Positions 39,448-52,847 of a stretch of 64,000 nucleotides of DNA are shown here, piece by piece. Every line of letters begins with the position of its first letter. Positions within the stretch are counted from its first letter, which is position 1. Source of the DNA: Williamsia sp. 1135 (lineage in GTDB: Bacteria > Actinomycetota > Actinomycetes > Mycobacteriales > Mycobacteriaceae). The stretch spans positions 1-64,000 of the forward strand of contig NZ_MJEI01000082.1 of the NCBI RefSeq assembly GCF_002095395.1. The letters are read 5' to 3'. The notes beneath the pieces are model-generated. The model was not told the DNA's origin, made no database searches, and worked only from the letters and a program-made list of their open reading frames with translations. The position numbers were made by a program, and so were the translations under genes.

Positions 39448-39937
39448 AGCGATGCCTTCCAGTGCCAGGGCTGGTCAGAGAGAAAGAAGTCAGGACGCCG
39501 CGGGGCGTACACCAAAGGCAAGAGAACGAACCCGGACGATGGGGTGTCCCAGTGGACACGTCGGACCAGACACCATCCGATACCGGTACGGCTCGCACGC
39601 GAACCCCACCGGCTGCGCGGGACACCCCACACGCGGCGACAACGCGCCACGGCCGCTCGCAATAACACCTAAACTGGAAGAGTTCGGTGCTGTACCTACG
39701 GGTTCAGAGGCTGGACATTCGGTGCTCGGTGAGCGGCTAGACCGCAAATCTTGATCGCTCACTCGGTGCTTTTCGCCCTGGGAGAGGCCAGACGCCAAAT
39801 CACGTCCTCTCCCAGGGTCCCCCGGTCTGTCAGGCGGTCGCGCCCGAATCGTCACGTGTTCCTCCACGAGAACCTCCTTATTCTACTATCTCATAATAAA
39901 ACACACTTCTTAAGACCATGCAATAGAATCTGATGAT
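39448..39937. promoter_or_regulatory. Divergent promoter and leader of the conjugation operon
   Basis: Leftward: TTGCAT (39918-39923 complement) and TTTATT/TATTAT (39893-39900 complement) form a promoter, followed by a consensus AAGGAGG site and GTG at 39867 and a 12-bp hairpin (39776-39817). Rightward: TAGAAT (39924-39929) lies 8 bases before the GTG of the XRE gene, suggesting a leaderless start. The two promoters overlap, so one bound repressor could control both operons. No confident gene lies in the leader, although a 125-codon frame opens at 39867. Confidence 0.6.
39776..39817 (-). promoter_or_regulatory. Leader hairpin of the conjugation operon
   Basis: CCCTGGGAGAGG (39776-39787) and CCTCTCCCAGGG (39806-39817) form a perfect 12-bp stem with an 18-base loop in the leader between the promoter and the cutinase-family gene. 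No T-run follows, so attenuation or mRNA stabilisation is as likely as termination. Confidence 0.6.
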
Positions 39938-40447
39938 GTGACCTCAGGCGAAGAGTCCTCCAAAGTTGGTAATCGTGAGACGAAGAGACTTCGCGTGAGC
40001 CGTCGCGTATTGCGTGGGTTTGCTCCAGAGCACTTCAAGTCCCTTCGGATCGATGCGGGCCTTTCGCGTGGAGAACTCGGGCGGATAGCTGATGTGAGTG
40101 AAGGGGCTATCCGAGCTTGGGAAGTGGGTGAGGCTGTGCCACAGGTGGACACCCTCGATCGGGTGATGACCGCTCTTGGCCGTCCGATTAGCGAAGTAGT
40201 TCAGGTGCGGGCCGATGATCGGTATCTGGCGGACCTTCGCGTTCTGGCCGGATTGACTCAGCCGCAGTTGGCCCAACGGGCGGGCTGCTCCACTGCGCAG
40301 CTTGCGGCCGTCGAGCGCGCTCACCGGCCGCTCAAAGAGCCGTTGCTGACGAACATCGCAGCCGCACTGGGCACTGACAAGTCGGTCGTGGACGCGGCCT
40401 ACACGCGAACGCGACGACGGCCACCGACTCCAAGGCCTATGCCGTGA
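39938..40447 (+). CDS. Tandem XRE-type regulator (two HTH domains)
   Basis: This 169-residue protein has two Cro/CI-type HTH domains: FKSLRIDAGLSRGELGRIADVSEGAIRAWE at ~34-63 and LADLRVLAGLTQPQLAQRAGCSTAQLAAVE at ~95-124. It starts at a GTG eight bases after a -10 element, probably leaderless. It sits on the shared promoter region of the leftward conjugation operon and so is a good candidate for its repressor. No ligand or protease-sensing domain is present; the ImmA/IrrE-like protease at 42480-43010 could be its inactivator. Confidence 0.8.
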   Translation: MTSGEESSKVGNRETKRLRVSRRVLRGFAPEHFKSLRIDAGLSRGELGRIADVSEGAIRAWEVGEAVPQVDTLDRVMTALGRPISEVVQVRADDRYLADLRVLAGLTQPQLAQRAGCSTAQLAAVERAHRPLKEPLLTNIAAALGTDKSVVDAAYTRTRRRPPTPRPMP

Positions 40448-40489
40448 TGTCACAGGTTGCTACTCCTCCCCGGCGCACTCCCTATACTG

Positions 40490-40504
40490 GCGCTAATATA
40501 GCGC
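40490..40504 (+). promoter_or_regulatory. Palindromic operator before the second XRE gene
   Basis: GCGCTA-ATA-TAGCGC is a perfect 6-bp palindrome just downstream of a TATACT -10 element (40483-40488) and ~55 bases before the start of the XRE-type gene. The position suits an autorepression operator. Confidence 0.6.
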
Positions 40505-40558
40505 ACATATGTAAGCGGCGCGAGGGTGCCGGCCGGGAGCTACGCGAGGATGGTTGAC

Positions 40559-41128
40559 ATGCAACGCTTCGCCGATGTGATTAATCGGCGGAGACGTGAG
40601 CTGGGGCTAAGTCTTGCGTCTGTAGCTGCTGCGAATGGGCCTTCAGAACCCACGATGGTTCGCATTGAGAGCGGACAGAGTCCCCCTCTTCGTAACCCGA
40701 CGTTGGCAAAGCTCGATGTTGCCCTCAAGTGGCCGGCCGGCAGCGCTCGCAACGTTTACCAGGGCGGCGATCCACTGGTCAGCGAGCAGGCGGGTACGAC
40801 GGCGACGCACGGCGAGATTGCGGTTGCTGTCGGAACCATCACAGATCTCGTCGAAACTGTTACTGAGCTGAGCAACTACACCGCAGCGCACCCAGATCCC
40901 GAACTTGGCGAAGTTCTAGCCCGACTCCGGTACATCGTTTCTCCACTGGTCGGACGGGTGGTCGCAGATATGCTCCGTGACGAAAACCGACATGGAGTTG
41001 CGCCCAACCGGATTGCAGAGGCAATCCAGGTGTTTTTAGACACTCCCCCAGCAGACGTCACTCCATCGAGAACTGCGGCGAACACAGAGCTACGTAGACT
41101 AGCCGCGCGGACCCAGCAGAACGAGTAA
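40559..41128 (+). CDS. XRE-family regulator with C-terminal extension
   Basis: This ~189-residue protein has an N-terminal HTH (ADVINRRRRELGLSLASVAAANGPSEPTMVRIESGQSPP, ~4-42) and a helical C-terminal domain (AVAVGTITDLVETVTELSNY, RLRYIVSPLVGRVVADML). The ATG at 40559 has a GAGG site at good distance; an ATG nine bases upstream is an alternative. It follows a palindromic operator and is followed by a 113-codon gene. Together they face the nucleoside hydrolase/ImmA/membrane operon. Confidence 0.75.
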   Translation: MQRFADVINRRRRELGLSLASVAAANGPSEPTMVRIESGQSPPLRNPTLAKLDVALKWPAGSARNVYQGGDPLVSEQAGTTATHGEIAVAVGTITDLVETVTELSNYTAAHPDPELGEVLARLRYIVSPLVGRVVADMLRDENRHGVAPNRIAEAIQVFLDTPPADVTPSRTAANTELRRLAARTQQNE

Positions 41129-41147
41129 CACACTGAGAGGCGAGTCG

Positions 41148-41489
41148 GTGAATCAAACAGAAGAGCGCATCAAGCTCGTGGTTCAAACACTCCTGAACGA
41201 GGACGGTTTATCTGAGATCAGTGGCACTGTGGGGTGTTCGATCCAGCAGCTACAGAGCGGTGAGCTAACACCCTCTCAGATCGCCGTACTCGAGCGCACG
41301 TTGAGACTCCAAGAGTCATTTTTCAATCTTGGTGACTCCAACACTGAAGCGGAGCTCCGCCTAGTCAGAGCCCTCAAATTTGCAGGCCCGGAGAGGATAC
41401 GCCTGCGCGGAGCCCCACCTGTCGCTTTTCTTGCTCAGGCGTTAGAAGAAGTAGATCGCGCTGATTCCATCGACGCGCAAGAGCAATAA
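41148..41489 (+). CDS. Small HTH-like protein overlapping the opposite operon
   Basis: This 113-residue GTG-started protein is mostly helical (IKLVVQTLLNEDGLSEISGTVGCSIQQLQSGELTPSQIAVLERTL), with GCSIQQLQSGELTPSQI resembling the recognition part of a Cro-like domain. Its last ~115 bases overlap, on the opposite strand, the 3' end of the membrane-protein gene at 41374-42483. The tail-to-tail overlap implies that transcription of one affects the other. Confidence 0.6.
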   Translation: MNQTEERIKLVVQTLLNEDGLSEISGTVGCSIQQLQSGELTPSQIAVLERTLRLQESFFNLGDSNTEAELRLVRALKFAGPERIRLRGAPPVAFLAQALEEVDRADSIDAQEQ

Positions 41490-42483
41490 CATCTTCGGCG
41501 GTATTCGTTGGAACCGTCTCTCTGTTCTTTGCATGCAGTAGTTCCGCGTCGAAGTTGTCAGCACACAAAGTGGCCGCATCTAGCTTCAAAAAGTGCAGTG
41601 CTTCGATAGTTTCAGTAATTTGTCGAACAAGCCGGGTGTCGGGAGGCATAGCCGCAATCTCTGGGAGCCGGACATGAGGAGCGCGGTCGGTCACCACCCT
41701 CCAAACGGTCGGCAGGACAACAATCCACTCCCCCGTGAGGGTCGGTCCGTGCTGTCGCCCACGCAAGATCCATGCAGCCAGGCCGAGCAACCCAATTACG
41801 CACATACCCAGCGTGAAGTAGGCAAACAGATTTCCGTTGCTATCGCGTTGGAGCCGCTCAGCGGCCGAGAGCTTGCCCTGCCAGCTGGAGATCGAATACC
41901 AAAGCAGCATGACCGCGTTCACGCCCGTCGTGAAAAATAAGAGCACTGCAGCAGCGATGATCGCGGTCGAAGGCCGACGTTCATGGTCCCCATGGCGGAG
42001 GGATACAAGCACTACGATCAGCGCGTATAGGTCCCACAGCACGATTGCGCCGGCGTAAACCACGAAATAGCCGACGGACGTAACGGCGGAGGCTTCTTCG
42101 ATGGAGGTGGTCCGGTCGCCCCCGGCGACTCGATCAAGCAATATCAAGATGATGCTCACTGTCACCAGGAGCACGAGGTTCGCTGACCACCAACCGGAGT
42201 GTTTTCGGTGCTTGTCCCTTGAGATGTGGGCCGCCGAAGCTGCCACCAAAGCCGCAGCAACGCAGAGGATATGGGCAGCAACACGCACACTGCGCTCGTC
42301 GGCTAGTTCGACTGCCCAGTCGTTCAGGGGACCAAATTTTATGGTGTCCACCAGTGCAAAGCACGCGATAAGGAGCGTGAATAGATGTGCTACCGAACGC
42401 ATGACCGCAAAACGAGCTAACACTGTCACCCACGCGATGACGACTATTGAAGCATCAATCCACAACGGCAGATCGTTCCTCAT
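41374..42483 (-). CDS. MAB_1171c-type multi-helix membrane protein
   Basis: This 369-residue protein has about seven membrane helices in its first 250 residues (SIVVIAWVTVLARFAVM, LFTLLIACFALVDTI, LVLLVTVSIILILLDRV and others) and a cytoplasmic C-terminal domain (RLPEIAAMPPDTRLVRQITETIEALHFLK, AEDVIALARRWNQRD). The plan matches the MAB_1171c (DUF6545) family of putative transporters, often found next to ImmA/IrrE proteases and XRE regulators in actinobacteria. It overlaps the protease gene by four bases. Substrate and direction are unknown; a sensor role is also possible. Confidence 0.75.
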   Translation of the reverse strand: MRNDLPLWIDASIVVIAWVTVLARFAVMRSVAHLFTLLIACFALVDTIKFGPLNDWAVELADERSVRVAAHILCVAAALVAASAAHISRDKHRKHSGWWSANLVLLVTVSIILILLDRVAGGDRTTSIEEASAVTSVGYFVVYAGAIVLWDLYALIVVLVSLRHGDHERRPSTAIIAAAVLLFFTTGVNAVMLLWYSISSWQGKLSAAERLQRDSNGNLFAYFTLGMCVIGLLGLAAWILRGRQHGPTLTGEWIVVLPTVWRVVTDRAPHVRLPEIAAMPPDTRLVRQITETIEALHFLKLDAATLCADNFDAELLHAKNRETVPTNTAEDVIALARRWNQRDLLLLTPEQEKRQVGLRAGVSSPGLQI

Positions 42484-43010
42484 CGTGGTCCAAGGAACGT
42501 GTCTAGAACTGACGATGCACTTAACATCCGCTGACCCCTCTGTATCAAATCGAAATCTTCGTCTCGTGCCAGCGTCAGCATGAGTAACTGACTTGCCAAC
42601 AGCTCTGCGGACGCCTCGTCGGCGTTATCGAATGTCTCGCGGCGAAGTGCGTTGATGACGAGGTCTCTTGGGAGGGATGGAAACCACGCGGCCAGCAGGT
42701 CTTCGGTGATGCCCTCGCCCTGTTTGCCGCATGTATGTCCTAGCAGAATGTGGGCCAACTCGTGGGCGACGATCAAACGGGAGGGCCACTCACCCGACGC
42801 CGTGTCGTAGACGATGATGTGCGCGCTTTCAGTGGTTAGCACCATGCCGGAGATACCGTCAGAACCGCCGCCGACGGGAAATCCTGACAACGTGATTGCT
42901 CGCCCACACCGGTCCTGCGTGAAGGCGACAAGATCGTCGACACTAGAACACCTGCTTGACGCTGCACTACGAACAACTTTCTTAATGCGATGCGACGTAG
43001 TCTTTTTCAT
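42480..43010 (-). CDS. ImmA/IrrE-type zinc metalloprotease
   Basis: This ~176-residue protein has the zinc motif HELAHILLGH (HExxH plus downstream His) preceded by RLIVAHELAH and a beta-rich start with GMVLTTESAHIIVYD. ImmA/IrrE proteases cleave XRE-type repressors to derepress mobile elements or stress genes. The ATG at 43010 overlaps the stop of the nucleoside hydrolase gene (ATGA). Two XRE-type repressors are encoded in the facing operon and are the obvious candidate substrates. Confidence 0.82.
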   Translation of the reverse strand: MKKTTSHRIKKVVRSAASSRCSSVDDLVAFTQDRCGRAITLSGFPVGGGSDGISGMVLTTESAHIIVYDTASGEWPSRLIVAHELAHILLGHTCGKQGEGITEDLLAAWFPSLPRDLVINALRRETFDNADEASAELLASQLLMLTLARDEDFDLIQRGQRMLSASSVLDTFLGPR

Positions 43011-43915
43011 ATCAGGTTGCGCCGGATTGTTGCTCTGATCGCGTTCCTGTCGACGTGCGCGACACCGCGATGTCGGGAGGCTGCCCCGGTCTTCGCTGGA
43101 TGAAGACGGACCACCCCTGCATCCACGTCGACGAGGGCTGGGCGAGAACTCATGTTGGTGTGTCGTAGTGCTACACATGCCGCGACGCTGTCGTGGGCAG
43201 GCACGCCCCACTGGGGCCCGTACCCGTAGCTAGCTGCCCTGGATCGCCCATAGCTCTCATGTACGGCACGAAGTGCTTGGCTCGCCTCGCCAGTTCCGAA
43301 GTCGGTATCGTCGAGCACTACGGTTCGAGTGACGTCAAGGCCCACCCACGTGGTACGAAGGTCGCTGTGAGCCACGGCCGTTGATGCACGAGGGTTATGC
43401 CGCGTGTTGGTGTCCCCAGCAGCGGATAACCAGTCGCTGGGCTCCCCGAACCCATGGCCACCCATGACGATTACATCGCCGATCCATTCGGTAATCCGTG
43501 GTTCCATCTCAAGGGCCAGAGCCAGGTTCGTGAGAGGCGCGATTGCCAATAGCGCCCCCCGGCCGGCGGTGCGCTTAGCGAAGTCAATGATTGCTTCGGC
43601 GGCAGGTTGCGCCGAGCTCGCGGACGGGGGCTGCCGGGCGTCCGTCAAGGTATCTCCCAGGCCGTCTGAGCCGTGAGCGTCACCCCGAACCCAGCTGGCG
43701 GTCGGAGGGCCCCCTGTAACCACAGCGGACGACGATCCCCACAGATCCAGTACCCACTGGGCGTTCCGAGCCGCCTCCCCCGCGGTGCAATTCCCCCAGG
43801 TCGTCGATATTCCATGGAGCTTGCCTGCGGCCAGCACAAGACTGATGGCGAGTGAGTCATCCACCCCGCAATCAGTGTCTACCCACACGAGCTGCTCGTC
43901 AGTGAGCTGCCTCAT
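43007..43915 (-). CDS. Inosine-uridine-type nucleoside hydrolase
   Basis: This 302-residue enzyme hydrolyses the N-glycosidic bond of nucleosides to base and ribose. The family motif DTDCGVDDSLA (13-23) gives the calcium-binding aspartates, ALLAIAPLTNLALAL is the central strand, GDTNTRHNPRAS is the substrate loop and PAHDSVAACVAL carries the catalytic His-Asp. All key residues are present, so it should be active. It heads an operon with the ImmA/IrrE-type protease and MAB_1171c-type protein, an unusual partnership that suggests a nucleoside-linked signal rather than salvage. Confidence 0.85.
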   Translation of the reverse strand: MRQLTDEQLVWVDTDCGVDDSLAISLVLAAGKLHGISTTWGNCTAGEAARNAQWVLDLWGSSSAVVTGGPPTASWVRGDAHGSDGLGDTLTDARQPPSASSAQPAAEAIIDFAKRTAGRGALLAIAPLTNLALALEMEPRITEWIGDVIVMGGHGFGEPSDWLSAAGDTNTRHNPRASTAVAHSDLRTTWVGLDVTRTVVLDDTDFGTGEASQALRAVHESYGRSRAASYGYGPQWGVPAHDSVAACVALRHTNMSSRPALVDVDAGVVRLHPAKTGAASRHRGVAHVDRNAIRATIRRNLI

Positions 43916-44021
43916 TAGTCCCCCATGTATTAGTGGCTATGTAAGCGGTAGGGTCAATTATGTGTGCACCAACCGCGTGTCGCTACCCCAAAAGCGCCTT
44001 TTGTGTAGCCAAAATAGGGCC

Positions 44022-49995: not shown

Positions 49996-50421
49996 TCACC
50001 CTTTCGCGAGGCCCAGTGGGTGTGGCGCTTCGCTCCCGAGCCATTTTCCGGTGAACAACCATTGTTCGTAGAAGTAGAGCCATTCGCTGGCCCAGGGGAC
50101 GATGGTGGTCGCAATCAGGTCCTTGGATCCGTCAAACTCGTTGCCGTAGTAAAGGCAGAGCTCGTTGCCTGGGTAGATGTGGGGTAGCGGCTCAAGGGGG
50201 CGTGTCTCGAGCTCCGGGGTCAAGACGGTTACCCGTGGACGCCGTCGGTGCGTGTAACGAATGCCCACGGTGTAGGCGATGCTCATCGGTGTCGGTTGCA
50301 GGGTGACAGACCACACCAGCGTGCCCGCCTTGATCAATGGCCTTCGCACACTGGGGAACTGCCGCTGAAGGTCAATCGCCTGCTGAATGACGGTCAGCTG
50401 CTTACCGTGCGGCCTGGCCAC
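49996..50421 (-). CDS. CBASS E2-like conjugation protein (type II-short)
   Basis: This 141-residue protein has the E2-like core of short type II CBASS operons: SVTLQPTPMSIAYTVGIRY as the central sheet, then PHIYPGNELCLYYG with Cys89 as likely catalytic cysteine, and IVPWASEWLYFYEQWLFTGKW as the C-terminal helix. In this class an E2-only protein links to the CD-NTase and primes it. The GTG start overlaps the CD-NTase gene by 20 bases. No E1 or JAB protein is encoded, so it is not a long type II system. Confidence 0.82.
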   Translation of the reverse strand: MARPHGKQLTVIQQAIDLQRQFPSVRRPLIKAGTLVWSVTLQPTPMSIAYTVGIRYTHRRRPRVTVLTPELETRPLEPLPHIYPGNELCLYYGNEFDGSKDLIATTIVPWASEWLYFYEQWLFTGKWLGSEAPHPLGLAKG

Positions 50422-51553
50422 CGTAGAACCTGTGGGCAGGAATCGTCGTGGTTGTCGCGGCGGTCGTGAGGCGTCCGCCGGCCGAGAGGTTCACATTTCC
50501 GCCCTCCCTGGCGCGGTTGGTGGCCGCGCCGATGTGTTGGAGAGCCTGTTCGACAGGATCAGTGCCGAAGGCCTTCGCGAATCGTTGATGCAGTGCGGTG
50601 GTGCCGGAGGTTTCCAGGACGAAGCCGGTGAGGTCGCGCTCGACCGCTGTGCGCCACTGCTCGAACTTCAGTCGGCGAATCTCGTAATCGTTCCACTTGT
50701 CAGCGAAGTTCTCGCCCGCGCACGCGGGGTTCTCCACCCAGTATTTTCCGGCGCGGTTCTCGATGTGATCGTGCATGCGCTGCACCGCGCTGATGGTCGC
50801 ATCAACGAGATCGGTCTTGCCCTGGTACGTTAGGCCTGCGAGAGTCGTGATAAGGCTGGACGGCGGTCGGTCGTCGAGGTCCTCGGCGAAGAAAATGTCG
50901 CGGTGCCGTTTGAGGATCTGGACCACCCGATGGAGCGGTGTGCGGACGCGGTGCTTAGGCACGTCGTCGACCGAACCGTAGGACTTGGCGAGCGCAACTC
51001 GTTCAGCATCGAACTGTCGGGCGCATTGGCGGCGGAACCACTCGACGTAGGCCAATGGGTCGGACTTCTGCCAGTTTCGCAGGTTGAGATCGGTGAGTTC
51101 GATCGCGGTCGCCGATGGAGACTCGACGTCGAGGATGGCGGGCAGCACGTCCATGTGGAAGTGCTCGTAGTGGAGGCACCATGAGCGCCGACCTTCGGAC
51201 ACCTGGTTGGGGCTCTCGCAGGCGGCGCCGTCGTGATCGCGGTGGTATTCCGCGAGCAGTCGTCCGACCCGCTTCTTGAGCTCTTCCTGGCTGATGGACG
51301 TCTTTGCGATGTCGAGCAGGGACACCAGGTCGAGGTCATACTCACCGGCTCGGTGAAGAGGGCGGACGACTGTGCCGAGCATGAAGCTGCCCTGGACATA
51401 GACCTGCGCGCCGGCCTGCGAAAGGTGGTCACCCAGATCTTGGTAGCAGGATTCAGCGGCCCGGAACGCCGCCTCGTTGATGTCGAGCTCAGCGATGGTG
51501 GCCCCGAGGAGCTGGGAGATCTGCTGTTCTTTGCTGTCGGCGAGGATGGTCAT
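50402..51553 (-). CDS. CBASS cyclic-oligonucleotide synthase (CD-NTase)
   Basis: This 383-residue nucleotidyltransferase makes a cyclic di- or trinucleotide alarm signal upon phage infection. It has the GS motif GSFMLGT (55-61), the metal-binding DLD (73-75) and the third acidic residue in HFHMDVLPAILD (D135). The helical C-terminal half (HRVVQILKRHRDIFF) is typical of CD-NTases. The product cannot be inferred from the sequence. The ATG at 51553 lies 43 bp after the stop of the effector gene. All catalytic residues are intact. Confidence 0.88.
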   Translation of the reverse strand: MTILADSKEQQISQLLGATIAELDINEAAFRAAESCYQDLGDHLSQAGAQVYVQGSFMLGTVVRPLHRAGEYDLDLVSLLDIAKTSISQEELKKRVGRLLAEYHRDHDGAACESPNQVSEGRRSWCLHYEHFHMDVLPAILDVESPSATAIELTDLNLRNWQKSDPLAYVEWFRRQCARQFDAERVALAKSYGSVDDVPKHRVRTPLHRVVQILKRHRDIFFAEDLDDRPPSSLITTLAGLTYQGKTDLVDATISAVQRMHDHIENRAGKYWVENPACAGENFADKWNDYEIRRLKFEQWRTAVERDLTGFVLETSGTTALHQRFAKAFGTDPVEQALQHIGAATNRAREGGNVNLSAGGRLTTAATTTTIPAHRFYGGQAAR

Positions 51554-51596
51554 GGCATGAGTGCTTCCGGGTGGGAGGTGATGTGGACGGGTGGGG

Positions 51597-52847
51597 TCAT
51601 GAGTCTGTTTCCAACGCCAGGACGTAGGTGCCGTCGATGCGGTCGAACACGCGGAGCTGAGCGTGAGCCGCGGCCATATGGGCGCGGCCAATTTCTACCG
51701 CTGCGGCGGCAGGTACCGCGAGGACGAGACTGATCGGCTGATTGCGATGGTCCGCCTCGATGGCCGCGAGGACTTCGCGCCACGTATCGATGAGCGCCTG
51801 AAGATCCTCAGAGCTGCGCAGGATCGTGGGACTCAACGAAACACCCTCTGCGCGGATGTCATAGCGCGGTGCGTTGCGCAACGTGCCGGGAAGCGAGTCA
51901 AGGTCGACCGGCCCGCTGATGCTCACCGTGACGAGCGGAGCACCAGAACCTGGAACTGCCGTGACACGAAACTGCAGGTTGTTGCTGCGGCCGTGGGAGT
52001 ACCACCCCCAGCCGTCGCCGGTTCCGCGCCGACGGTTGTGGACGGTTACGTTTGTGACGTCGTCGAGCAACACGCCGAGCTGCACGAGAATCGGAATTCG
52101 TGCGAGCGCGAACACCGAGATGTGATCGACCTGCTTGGTCTTGAGATGGTTGCTCAGAGGCCGCAGACGCTTCCCCAGAGTGAGGGCAGCGGCCTTCCAG
52201 TACGTGGGGTCGCTGTCGTCTTCGCCATCAAGGGAGCGGAGGTCGACCTCACAGTTGCGGCTGTCGTCATGCAGGCTGAAGTCGGGGAACCGCTGGTCCT
52301 CCAACAGGGCACGGATCACGGCCTGTTTGCTGAAGTCGACTGCCTGTCCGCGCACGTCGCCGGACACACGAATGACGGTGCTCTTGGGTTTGCGTAGCAG
52401 TCCCGTCAGCTCGTGGATGTCGCGCTCGTGCTGCTCTTTGAGCGCGCGCAGCTCATCCTCGTTGTAGGTCGACCAGTGCTCGAAGGTGTCGATTACCTTG
52501 TGCTCACCCGGGCAGAGCAACATCAGGTTGTGCGGCAGTGCGCGTTGCGTCAGCGGCATCGAACTTGCGCCCCGCGGCGACCCTTTCTCGGTCGTGGCAC
52601 CGATGATGTGGGCGAGCTGTCCTGTGAACACAGACTGACCGGTCGTCTCGTCGTCGGCCAGAAACTCCTTGCAAAACGTGCACCGCCCACCAGCAGCAAC
52701 CCACACGCGTCTGGCGTCGAGGTCGCCGACGGTCACACGCTTCCCCCGACGGTCGAAAGCGCCAAACATCTCGACCCGATCCGTGGGGTCGGTCGTGTCT
52801 GACTCGTGCGTCGCAGTCGTGGGCATGGGGCGGGTCCTACGAGACAT
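51597..52847 (-). CDS. cap5: Cap5-like CBASS effector (HNH nuclease with SAVED domain)
   Basis: This 416-residue protein is the killer of the CBASS operon. The N-terminal HNH nuclease has RCTFCKEF (C56, C59), QLAHIIGA (H80), PHNLMLLCPGEHKVID (N107, C112, H116). The C-terminal SAVED domain (~200-416), with HISVFALARIPILVQLGVLL and GPVDLDSLPG, senses the cyclic nucleotide. On binding, Cap5 oligomerises and degrades cellular DNA. An ATG at 52826 with a better ribosome site is an alternative start. It is the first gene of the leftward operon. Confidence 0.88.
   Translation of the reverse strand: MSRRTRPMPTTATHESDTTDPTDRVEMFGAFDRRGKRVTVGDLDARRVWVAAGGRCTFCKEFLADDETTGQSVFTGQLAHIIGATTEKGSPRGASSMPLTQRALPHNLMLLCPGEHKVIDTFEHWSTYNEDELRALKEQHERDIHELTGLLRKPKSTVIRVSGDVRGQAVDFSKQAVIRALLEDQRFPDFSLHDDSRNCEVDLRSLDGEDDSDPTYWKAAALTLGKRLRPLSNHLKTKQVDHISVFALARIPILVQLGVLLDDVTNVTVHNRRRGTGDGWGWYSHGRSNNLQFRVTAVPGSGAPLVTVSISGPVDLDSLPGTLRNAPRYDIRAEGVSLSPTILRSSEDLQALIDTWREVLAAIEADHRNQPISLVLAVPAAAAVEIGRAHMAAAHAQLRVFDRIDGTYVLALETDS

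What the first reader, a model, noticed from the sequence alone, without database searches (positions are those of the whole stretch)
39938..43915. Possible new module: two XRE regulators facing nucleoside hydrolase, ImmA/IrrE protease and MAB_1171c-type membrane protein
The leftward genes overlap by four bases each, so they work together. An ImmA/IrrE protease with candidate XRE substrates in the facing operon suggests regulated derepression. A nucleoside hydrolase in such an operon is unusual and suggests that a nucleoside or nucleotide-derived molecule is the signal or the target. I know no described system with this set.
Basis: inference. Interest (0 to 1): 0.68.

Follow-up and report, generated by a model that had tools for sequence, protein, structure and literature searches.

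The report
Plasmid switch with nucleoside hydrolase
Six neighbouring plasmid genes form a conserved, apparently undescribed switch that combines a seven-helix membrane protein, a putative protease, gene regulators and a swappable enzyme (here a nucleoside hydrolase), often beside the genes that move the plasmid between soil bacteria.

Summary
The set is xre1, hth2, EspR-like (rightward) facing DUF6545-type 7TM protein, M78-like protease and nucleoside hydrolase (leftward). Thirteen loci pair this hydrolase with the protease; 12 of them have hth2, but only 6 have xre1.

Two further findings. (1) An operator-like site, TATRTAAGYG, lies upstream of both facing operons: in 168 kb of eight close loci all 23 matches with at most one mismatch are there. 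(2) The EspR-like/protease/DUF6545 trio is widespread, and in relatives the enzyme slot holds P450, FAD monooxygenase, methyltransferases or esterases. A cutinase-type transfer gene is near in 19 of 30 hth2 loci (9 of 17 in the less biased survey).

Best reading: a ligand-responsive, proteolysis-based switch influencing plasmid transfer, working like ICEBs1 ImmA/ImmR but with a membrane receptor and a ligand-making or ligand-removing enzyme. Ligand, cleavage and transfer control are inferred.

The parts
39995..40447 (+). xre1: two tandem XRE-type HTH domains (alternative GTG start 39938); lies between the transfer genes and hth2; not a constant part (6 of 13 hydrolase loci)
   Evidence: PF13560 and PF01381; start chosen from alignment A6; counts
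40491..40517 (.). Operator-like inverted repeat upstream of hth2: CGCTAATATA-7 nt-TATGTAAGCG; same 17-nt register in L003 and L005
40550..41128 (+). hth2: HTH regulator with conserved C-terminal region, remotely like EspM (NF052403 E 4e-7, 29 bits against a cut-off of 550)
   Evidence: family survey
   Evidence: alignment; EspR by mixed profile (5e-9) and (hhalign 88%, 2.9e-6, to an EspR-type profile that hits EspR at 4e-28); five close orthologs alone do not hit EspR
41374..42483 (-). mem: divergent DUF6545/MAB_1171c-type protein, predicted 7 TM helices, N-out/C-in, cytosolic tail
42480..43010 (-). prot: ImmA/IrrE (M78)-like metallopeptidase, HEXXH and downstream Glu kept; 4-nt overlaps on both sides
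43007..43915 (-). NH: PF01156 nucleoside hydrolase of a separate clade; DxDxxxDD and HD motifs kept, Asp in place of the usual active-site Glu (GDTN)
43938..43947 (+). Operator-like half-site TATGTAAGCG, 22 nt upstream of the NH start codon
37885..39447 (-). Context: cutinase-type gene heading the leftward transfer region, divergent from xre1; putative regulated target
   Evidence: PF01083; its family is in 19 of 30 hth2 loci

Best explanation
It is a plasmid-borne, ligand-responsive regulatory switch. Two facing operons are co-regulated through one shared operator, probably bound by hth2. Inferred mechanism: the 7TM DUF6545-type protein senses a small molecule and, through its cytosolic tail, gates the translationally coupled M78-like protease. 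The protease then cleaves the EspR-like protein (or hth2, or xre1 where present), relieving repression of the module and of the adjacent conjugation genes. The first gene of the leftward operon is an enzyme that makes, trims or removes the ligand; in this version it is a nucleoside hydrolase acting on a nucleoside-like compound, possibly altered at its 5' end. Supported by computation: conservation, operon structure, shared operator-like site, intact catalytic motifs, 7TM topology, interchangeable enzyme slot, frequent proximity to transfer genes. Inferred: ligand sensing, cleavage, identity of the binding protein, control of transfer.
For: Hydrolase directly before the protease in 13 loci. 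Of 17 near-full-length hth2 places in 397 genomes of the order, 16 have the protease in the fetched stretch. Of 60 protease loci, 55 have the DUF6545-type gene adjacent and 52 have both it and an EspR-like gene (profiles built partly from these loci). Operator: 12 exact and 11 one-mismatch TATRTAAGYG sites in 168 kb of 8 close loci, all upstream of hth2 or NH; 0 exact in 341 kb of 23 other loci and 0 exact in the 858 kb of the 60 survey loci. 7TM with N-out/C-in charge pattern over 48 homologs; the model resembles receptors. Enzyme slot varied: P450, FAD monooxygenase, ICMT, LCM methyltransferase, GDSL, alpha/beta hydrolase. Cutinase-type transfer gene in 19 of 30 hth2 loci; in the survey loci, 3 of 9 with hth2 against 1 of 51 without. 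The window has relaxase and TraG-type coupling protein.
Against: No experiment. The number of operator sites in the window is not above chance (3 against 2.0 expected; 31 of 100 shuffles reach 3); only their placement is unusual, and the pattern was drawn from these promoters. No such site lies upstream of the transfer operon and no shared motif was found between xre1 and cutinase, so control of transfer rests on position only. 11 of 30 hth2 loci (8 of 17 in the survey) lack the cutinase gene in the stretch held. The site has no exact copy in the more distant hth2 loci and is missing from the NH promoters of L006, L010 and L011. L175 has hth2 and P450 but no recognised protease. xre1 is in 10 of 30 hth2 loci and in L002 lies on the far side of the hydrolase. 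The 7TM model is shallow (7 sequences, pLDDT 72, pTM 0.60). The window protease is below the M78 cut-off. Six hth2 loci show no clear enzyme, and several neighbours of trios without hth2 are plainly unrelated (DNA ligase, tRNA synthetase).
Confidence: 0.42

Rival explanations
1. An autonomous stress- or metabolite-responsive regulatory cassette, carried as plasmid cargo, that controls mainly its own enzyme and not conjugation; proximity to transfer genes reflects conserved plasmid backbone order.
For: The shared site lies only at the module's own two promoters. 11 of 30 hth2 loci lack the cutinase gene in the stretch held. 51 of 60 survey loci have no hth2 gene, and 50 of those 51 no cutinase gene, so the trio by itself is not a conjugation system.
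Against: Adjacency to the cutinase gene recurs with different enzyme variants (NH, P450, ICMT, LCM, FAD, GDSL, alpha/beta hydrolase), and hth2 loci carry it more often than other trios (3 of 9 against 1 of 51).
Confidence: 0.33
2. A defence or addiction module: the protease senses infection or plasmid loss, derepresses the module, and the hydrolase acts as effector by destroying nucleosides.
For: PADLOC capP matches the protease weakly (3e-6) and xre1 matches HTH-containing models such as RmrA (6e-14) and capH (1e-8), probably through the common HTH domain. M78/HTH pairs regulate CBASS in the CapP/CapH system (recalled). A CBASS operon lies about 6 kb away.
Against: No PADLOC hit for the hydrolase, membrane protein, hth2 or orf3. 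The enzyme slot is filled by P450 and methyltransferases in relatives, unlike toxic effectors. No relative of the hydrolase alignment was confirmed in viral contigs.
Confidence: 0.12
3. A membrane transporter with a catabolic enzyme: nucleoside uptake and salvage under a local repressor.
For: NCBI names the broader family a putative transporter; hydrolase catalytic motifs are intact.
Against: The hydrolase is in a separate clade from the genome's other two (100/99), the partner enzyme is not nucleoside-related in relatives, and a transporter does not explain the conserved protease and EspR-like protein.
Confidence: 0.08

Closest known systems
ImmA/ImmR of ICEBs1 (Bacillus subtilis)
   Same: M78-type metalloprotease encoded beside HTH regulators on a transferable element; there the protease cleaves the repressor and transfer is derepressed (passages of PMC6540685 seen)
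   Different: ICEBs1 uses a RapI/PhrI sensor-pheromone pair; here a 7TM protein and an enzyme gene are in the operon, the protease's usual neighbour is EspR-like, and cleavage is not shown
EspR (Mycobacterium tuberculosis ESX-1 regulator)
   Same: EspR-like members from other genomes are EspR relatives by profile (3.7e-28); window orf3 joins them by profile-profile comparison
   Different: Window orf3 is shorter with a reduced HTH region, and EspR is not known to me to pair with a protease (recalled)
MAB_1171c / DUF6545 family
   Same: Membrane protein aligns with family members over the 7TM region and tail, 19% identity to L009
   Different: Window protein falls below both curated models; the only paper found (PMC8707978, passages seen) reports about half the biofilm in a MAB_1171c knockout and calls it a transporter
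CapH/CapP regulators of CBASS
   Same: HTH regulator plus M78-type protease (recalled; weak capP match)
   Different: No CBASS genes in the module; the window's CBASS lies apart
Actinobacterial conservons with P450 (cvn loci, recalled)
   Same: Membrane-associated signalling cassettes with an attached P450 in some members
   Different: By recall those encode a sensor-kinase-like protein, a roadblock protein and a GTPase; none of the six module genes was identified as such

Membership tests
M78 (ImmA/IrrE) metallopeptidase | HEXXH zinc site with a downstream Glu | tested here: met
   H, E, H of HEXXH and two downstream Glu invariant in 8 aligned sequences
M78 (ImmA/IrrE) metallopeptidase | Passes Pfam PF06114 gathering cut-off | tested here: not met
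   Window protein 15.5 of 22 bits; of 7 homologs scanned L003 (22.9) and L007 (23.6) pass. I therefore call it M78-like
ImmA/ImmR-type switch | Protease cleaves an HTH repressor encoded nearby | not testable with these tools
   Only adjacency shown
ImmA/ImmR-type switch | Lies beside conjugation genes | tested here: met
   Relaxase, TraG-type protein, NlpC/P60 and cutinase genes in window; cutinase gene in 19 of 30 hth2 loci, 9 of 17 in the order survey
EspR family | Sequence profile match to EspR over HTH and C-terminal part | tested here: inconclusive
   Mixed profile 5e-9, profile-profile 2.9e-6; five closest orthologs alone no hit
IU nucleoside hydrolase (PF01156) | Fold and DxDxxxDD Ca site | tested here: met
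   163.9 bits, motif kept in 13 of 13 module members, model matches nucleoside hydrolases, TM 0.83
Salvage nucleoside hydrolase | Groups with the genome's other hydrolases (presumed salvage) and has Glu in the E-x-N ribose motif | tested here: not met
   Separate clade 100/99; Asp in 13 of 13 module and 6 of 6 sister rows; but 3 of 18 outside rows also have Asp
MAB_1171c family (NF042915) | Curated cut-off of the model | tested here: not met
   No hit for the window protein; relatives L009, L150, L158 pass, L002 does not
GPCR | Homology to eukaryotic receptors | tested here: inconclusive
   The 50 fold matches shown are all GPCRs, VIA Z 17.2 to 15.3, but Foldseek E 0.03 or worse and a shallow model; likeness of a helix bundle only

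The most novel reading that the evidence does not exclude
A family of bacterial hormone-like circuits: each cassette encodes one tailoring enzyme that makes a private small-molecule signal, a GPCR-like 7TM DUF6545 receptor, a protease gated by that receptor and an EspR-like target. Plasmids use it to time conjugation, and the nucleoside hydrolase version uses a nucleoside-derived pheromone.
Probability: 0.25. Interest if true: 0.88.

Novelty: new variant of a known kind. Interest (0 to 1): 0.6.

Why it matters
If right, it gives a concrete, testable signalling circuit for plasmid transfer in Rhodococcus, Gordonia and relatives, for which my few searches found no description. It would also give a function to two orphan protein families (DUF6545 proteins and their partner M78-like proteases) and suggest a class of small-molecule signals whose chemistry is set by an exchangeable enzyme.

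Tried and rejected
Pfam gave no family at the thresholds used for orf3, and PADLOC none for orf3 or the membrane protein; NCBIfam gave orf3 only a chance-level hit (maiA, 0.041) and the membrane protein none; Pfam gave the membrane protein only Oxidored_q3 below its cut-off. Profile methods were needed. No solved structure matched the protease profile A1 up to E 0.1. In viral contigs 84 stretches matched a hydrolase pattern and none was confirmed. Megablast of window 36000-60000 against plasmids gave only patchy matches in 5 records. A search for an xre1 operator in the xre1-cutinase gap gave no convincing shared motif; a 12-bp hairpin at 39776-39817 was found but not explained. Sigma-70 promoter scans at both operator sites were empty. 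Genes around the five sister hydrolases without the module (L012, L014-L017) gave no substrate clue on inspection only. The defence reading was considered and set low.

Limits of the counts. In one search the script marked two L002 sites as 'elsewhere' because it used a stop-to-stop frame; they lie 74 and 136 nt upstream of the annotated hth2 start, and I count them as promoter sites. The operator pattern was drawn from these promoters, so the hits there are largely in-sample; only the absence elsewhere is an independent test. The profiles were built from members of the loci they were then counted on, and the cutinase profile from 8 of its 19 positive loci. L006/L010 and L018/L019 are near-duplicates. 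Rows dropped: 11 partial hth2 matches (28 places listed, 17 near full length); L005 from the protease tree (no protease found); 41 of the 59 other hydrolase loci were not put in the tree.
Full report
WHAT IS THERE. The window is bases 1-64000 of an 80,544-base contig that carries ParA and ParG-like genes, a relaxase and a TraG-type coupling protein, so it is plasmid-like. At 39995-43915 lie six genes: rightward xre1, hth2 and orf3, and leftward (from the right) nucleoside hydrolase, M78-like protease and DUF6545-type membrane protein.

CONSERVATION. tblastn of protease and membrane protein in plasmids found 24 and 9 records. Eight stretches were opened: Rhodococcus erythropolis (two), R. opacus, Gordonia (three), Hoyosella and Nocardia. 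A genome scan for the hydrolase alignment gave 70 loci. Eleven are actinobacterial and fall in the window's hydrolase clade; of the other 59, 18 were put in the tree and all fell outside it. Six of the 11 (L010, L011, L013, L018, L019, L036) have the module and five (L012, L014-L017) do not. With five plasmids (L002, L003, L004, L006, L008), one further genome (L178, hydrolase profile E 1e-15) and the window that makes 13 loci with hydrolase directly before protease. Of these 13, 12 have hth2, 12 have orf3 and the membrane gene, and 6 have xre1. The hydrolase version is rare: 21 of 397 genomes of the order match the alignment at E 1e-40, but only the own genome and one non-module relative score below 1e-60.

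THE CORE TRIO. The protease profile hit 159 of 397 genomes of the order. Of 60 loci fetched, 55 have a DUF6545-type gene adjacent, 53 an EspR-like gene near (46 on the same strand) and 52 both (Pfam's DUF6545 was checked on four members only). hth2 marks a subtype: of 17 near-full-length hth2 places in the same 397 genomes, 16 have the protease in the fetched stretch; the exception, L175, has a P450 beside hth2. Across all 30 hth2 loci held, 19 also carry the cutinase-type gene that heads the transfer region in the window, and two more only the NlpC-type gene. That figure is raised by the plasmid collection: among the 17 survey places it is 9 of 17, and among the 60 protease loci 3 of 9 with hth2 against 1 of 51 without.

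THE ENZYME SLOT. In the 30 hth2 loci the extra enzyme, on either strand beside the trio, is the hydrolase (12), P450 (6: L009, L118, L143, L158, L164, and L175 without protease), GDSL lipase (L157, L176), FAD monooxygenase (L174), ICMT-type (L173) or LCM-type (L177) methyltransferase, or a divergently placed alpha/beta hydrolase (L007); six loci showed no clear enzyme (L005, L110, L151, L163, L165, L179), two of them disturbed by insertion sequences. P450 in L118, L143, L164 and L175 and GDSL in L176 rest on similarity to L158 and L157, the others on Pfam or the record's annotation. In trios without hth2 the next gene is often an oxygenase, methyltransferase or hydrolase, but sometimes plainly unrelated. 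On a protease tree the hydrolase label needs one change (support 57/76; shuffled mean 9.5) and P450 two, so enzyme and protease are mostly inherited together; L118 may be an independent P450 pairing, which the supported branches do not force.

A SHARED OPERATOR-LIKE SITE. TATRTAAGYG has two exact matches in the 64-kb window, upstream of hth2 (40508) and upstream of the hydrolase (43938), and one match with a mismatch, 40491, which forms an inverted repeat with 40508. The number is not above chance (2.0 expected; 31 of 100 shuffles reach 3); the placement is what is unusual. In eight close loci (168 kb) all 12 exact and 11 one-mismatch sites lie upstream of hth2 or of the hydrolase. Twenty-three other loci (22 with hth2, 341 kb) have 0 exact and 9 one-mismatch sites, one of them at hth2 of L009; the 60 survey loci (858 kb, overlapping that set) have 0 exact and 9 one-mismatch. 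Hydrolase promoters with such sites: window, L002, L003, L004; without: L006, L010, L011. The inverted repeat keeps its 17-nt register in window, L003 and L005. This argues that the two facing operons share a regulator; hth2 is my guess because its promoter carries most of the sites.

THE HYDROLASE. It has the PF01156 fold (pLDDT 85; nearest solved: plant and Leishmania hydrolases). The Ca-site motif DxDxxxDD is kept in 13 of 13 module members and the Asp of the HD motif in 13 of 13; the His is Asn in L011 and Tyr in L018, L019 and L178. Module and sister hydrolases form one clade (100/99) apart from the two other hydrolases of the same genome, which I presume to be salvage enzymes; inside the clade module and non-module rows are mixed (L008, L036 and L013 branch with the sisters). 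Their ribose motif has Asp where the two paralogs and 15 of 18 outside rows have Glu. In the canonical enzyme this Glu and an Asn six residues before it contact the ribose 5'-OH (recalled), and that Asn has no clear counterpart in the alignment. I infer a changed 5' end of the substrate.

THE MEMBRANE PROTEIN. AlphaFold2 with seven sequences gives a seven-helix bundle and a poorly modelled tail (pLDDT 72, pTM 0.60). Charge of the loops over 48 homologs alternates as expected for N-out, C-in. The 50 fold matches shown are all GPCRs (VIA Z 17.2 down to 15.3, where the tool's note gives about 14 as the best for helical models without relatives). Foldseek E-values are weak (0.03 or worse) and GPCRs are abundant in the PDB, so I read this as receptor-like topology, not homology.

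THE EspR-LIKE PROTEIN. Seven EspR-like members from other genomes hit EspR as a profile at 3.7e-28. Window orf3 with its four close orthologs does not hit it alone but aligns to that profile (88%, 2.9e-6). Its HTH region is shortened, so it may have lost DNA binding and act as the proteolysed part; this is inference.

MECHANISM AND LIMITS. The parts fit a sensor (7TM), a gate (protease), targets (EspR-like, hth2, xre1 where present) and an enzyme that sets the ligand level. It works like ICEBs1 ImmA/ImmR (PMC6540685, passages seen) but is not filed as one, because cleavage is untested and the window protease is under the M78 cut-off. Control of conjugation rests on position alone; no shared operator was found at the transfer promoter.

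LITERATURE. Searches of open-licence PMC for MAB_1171c, DUF6545, EspR or ImmA with related terms, nucleoside hydrolase with Rhodococcus plasmids, cutinase with conjugative plasmids and bacterial GPCR-like receptors listed no paper on this module (listings only, apart from the two papers named here). Only PMC8707978 holds the word MAB_1171c: a knockout with about half the biofilm of the control (passages seen).

Noticed in passing
window 50002-52847 (-): A CBASS operon: CD-NTase, stand-alone E2-like protein and HNH-SAVED endonuclease.
   Followed up: partly
window 39776-39817: Perfect 12-bp hairpin with 18-nt loop in the gap between cutinase and xre1, with three near-copies of an 11-mer nearby; role unknown.
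   Followed up: no
L003 8624-12895, L005 114-1718, L151 4014-6241: Insertion sequences sit inside or beside the membrane gene in three module copies (L151 by similarity to L003), as if its loss is tolerated or selected.
   Followed up: no
L175 6563-8657: P450 convergent with an hth2-family gene, without a recognised protease or DUF6545-type gene.
   Followed up: no
L012, L014, L015, L016, L017: Rhodococcus and Hoyosella hydrolases of the same clade outside the module.
   Followed up: partly
L138, L139, L141, L142, L147, L150: mpaB/Lcp-type oxygenase family after the EspR-like/protease/DUF6545 trio, abutting it in five of six (Pfam on L150 only).
   Followed up: no
window 40550-41128: hth2 aligns weakly with EspM, and orf3 with EspR, both ESX-1 regulators in mycobacteria; a shared ancestry of plasmid and ESX-1 regulators would be worth a look.
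   Followed up: no
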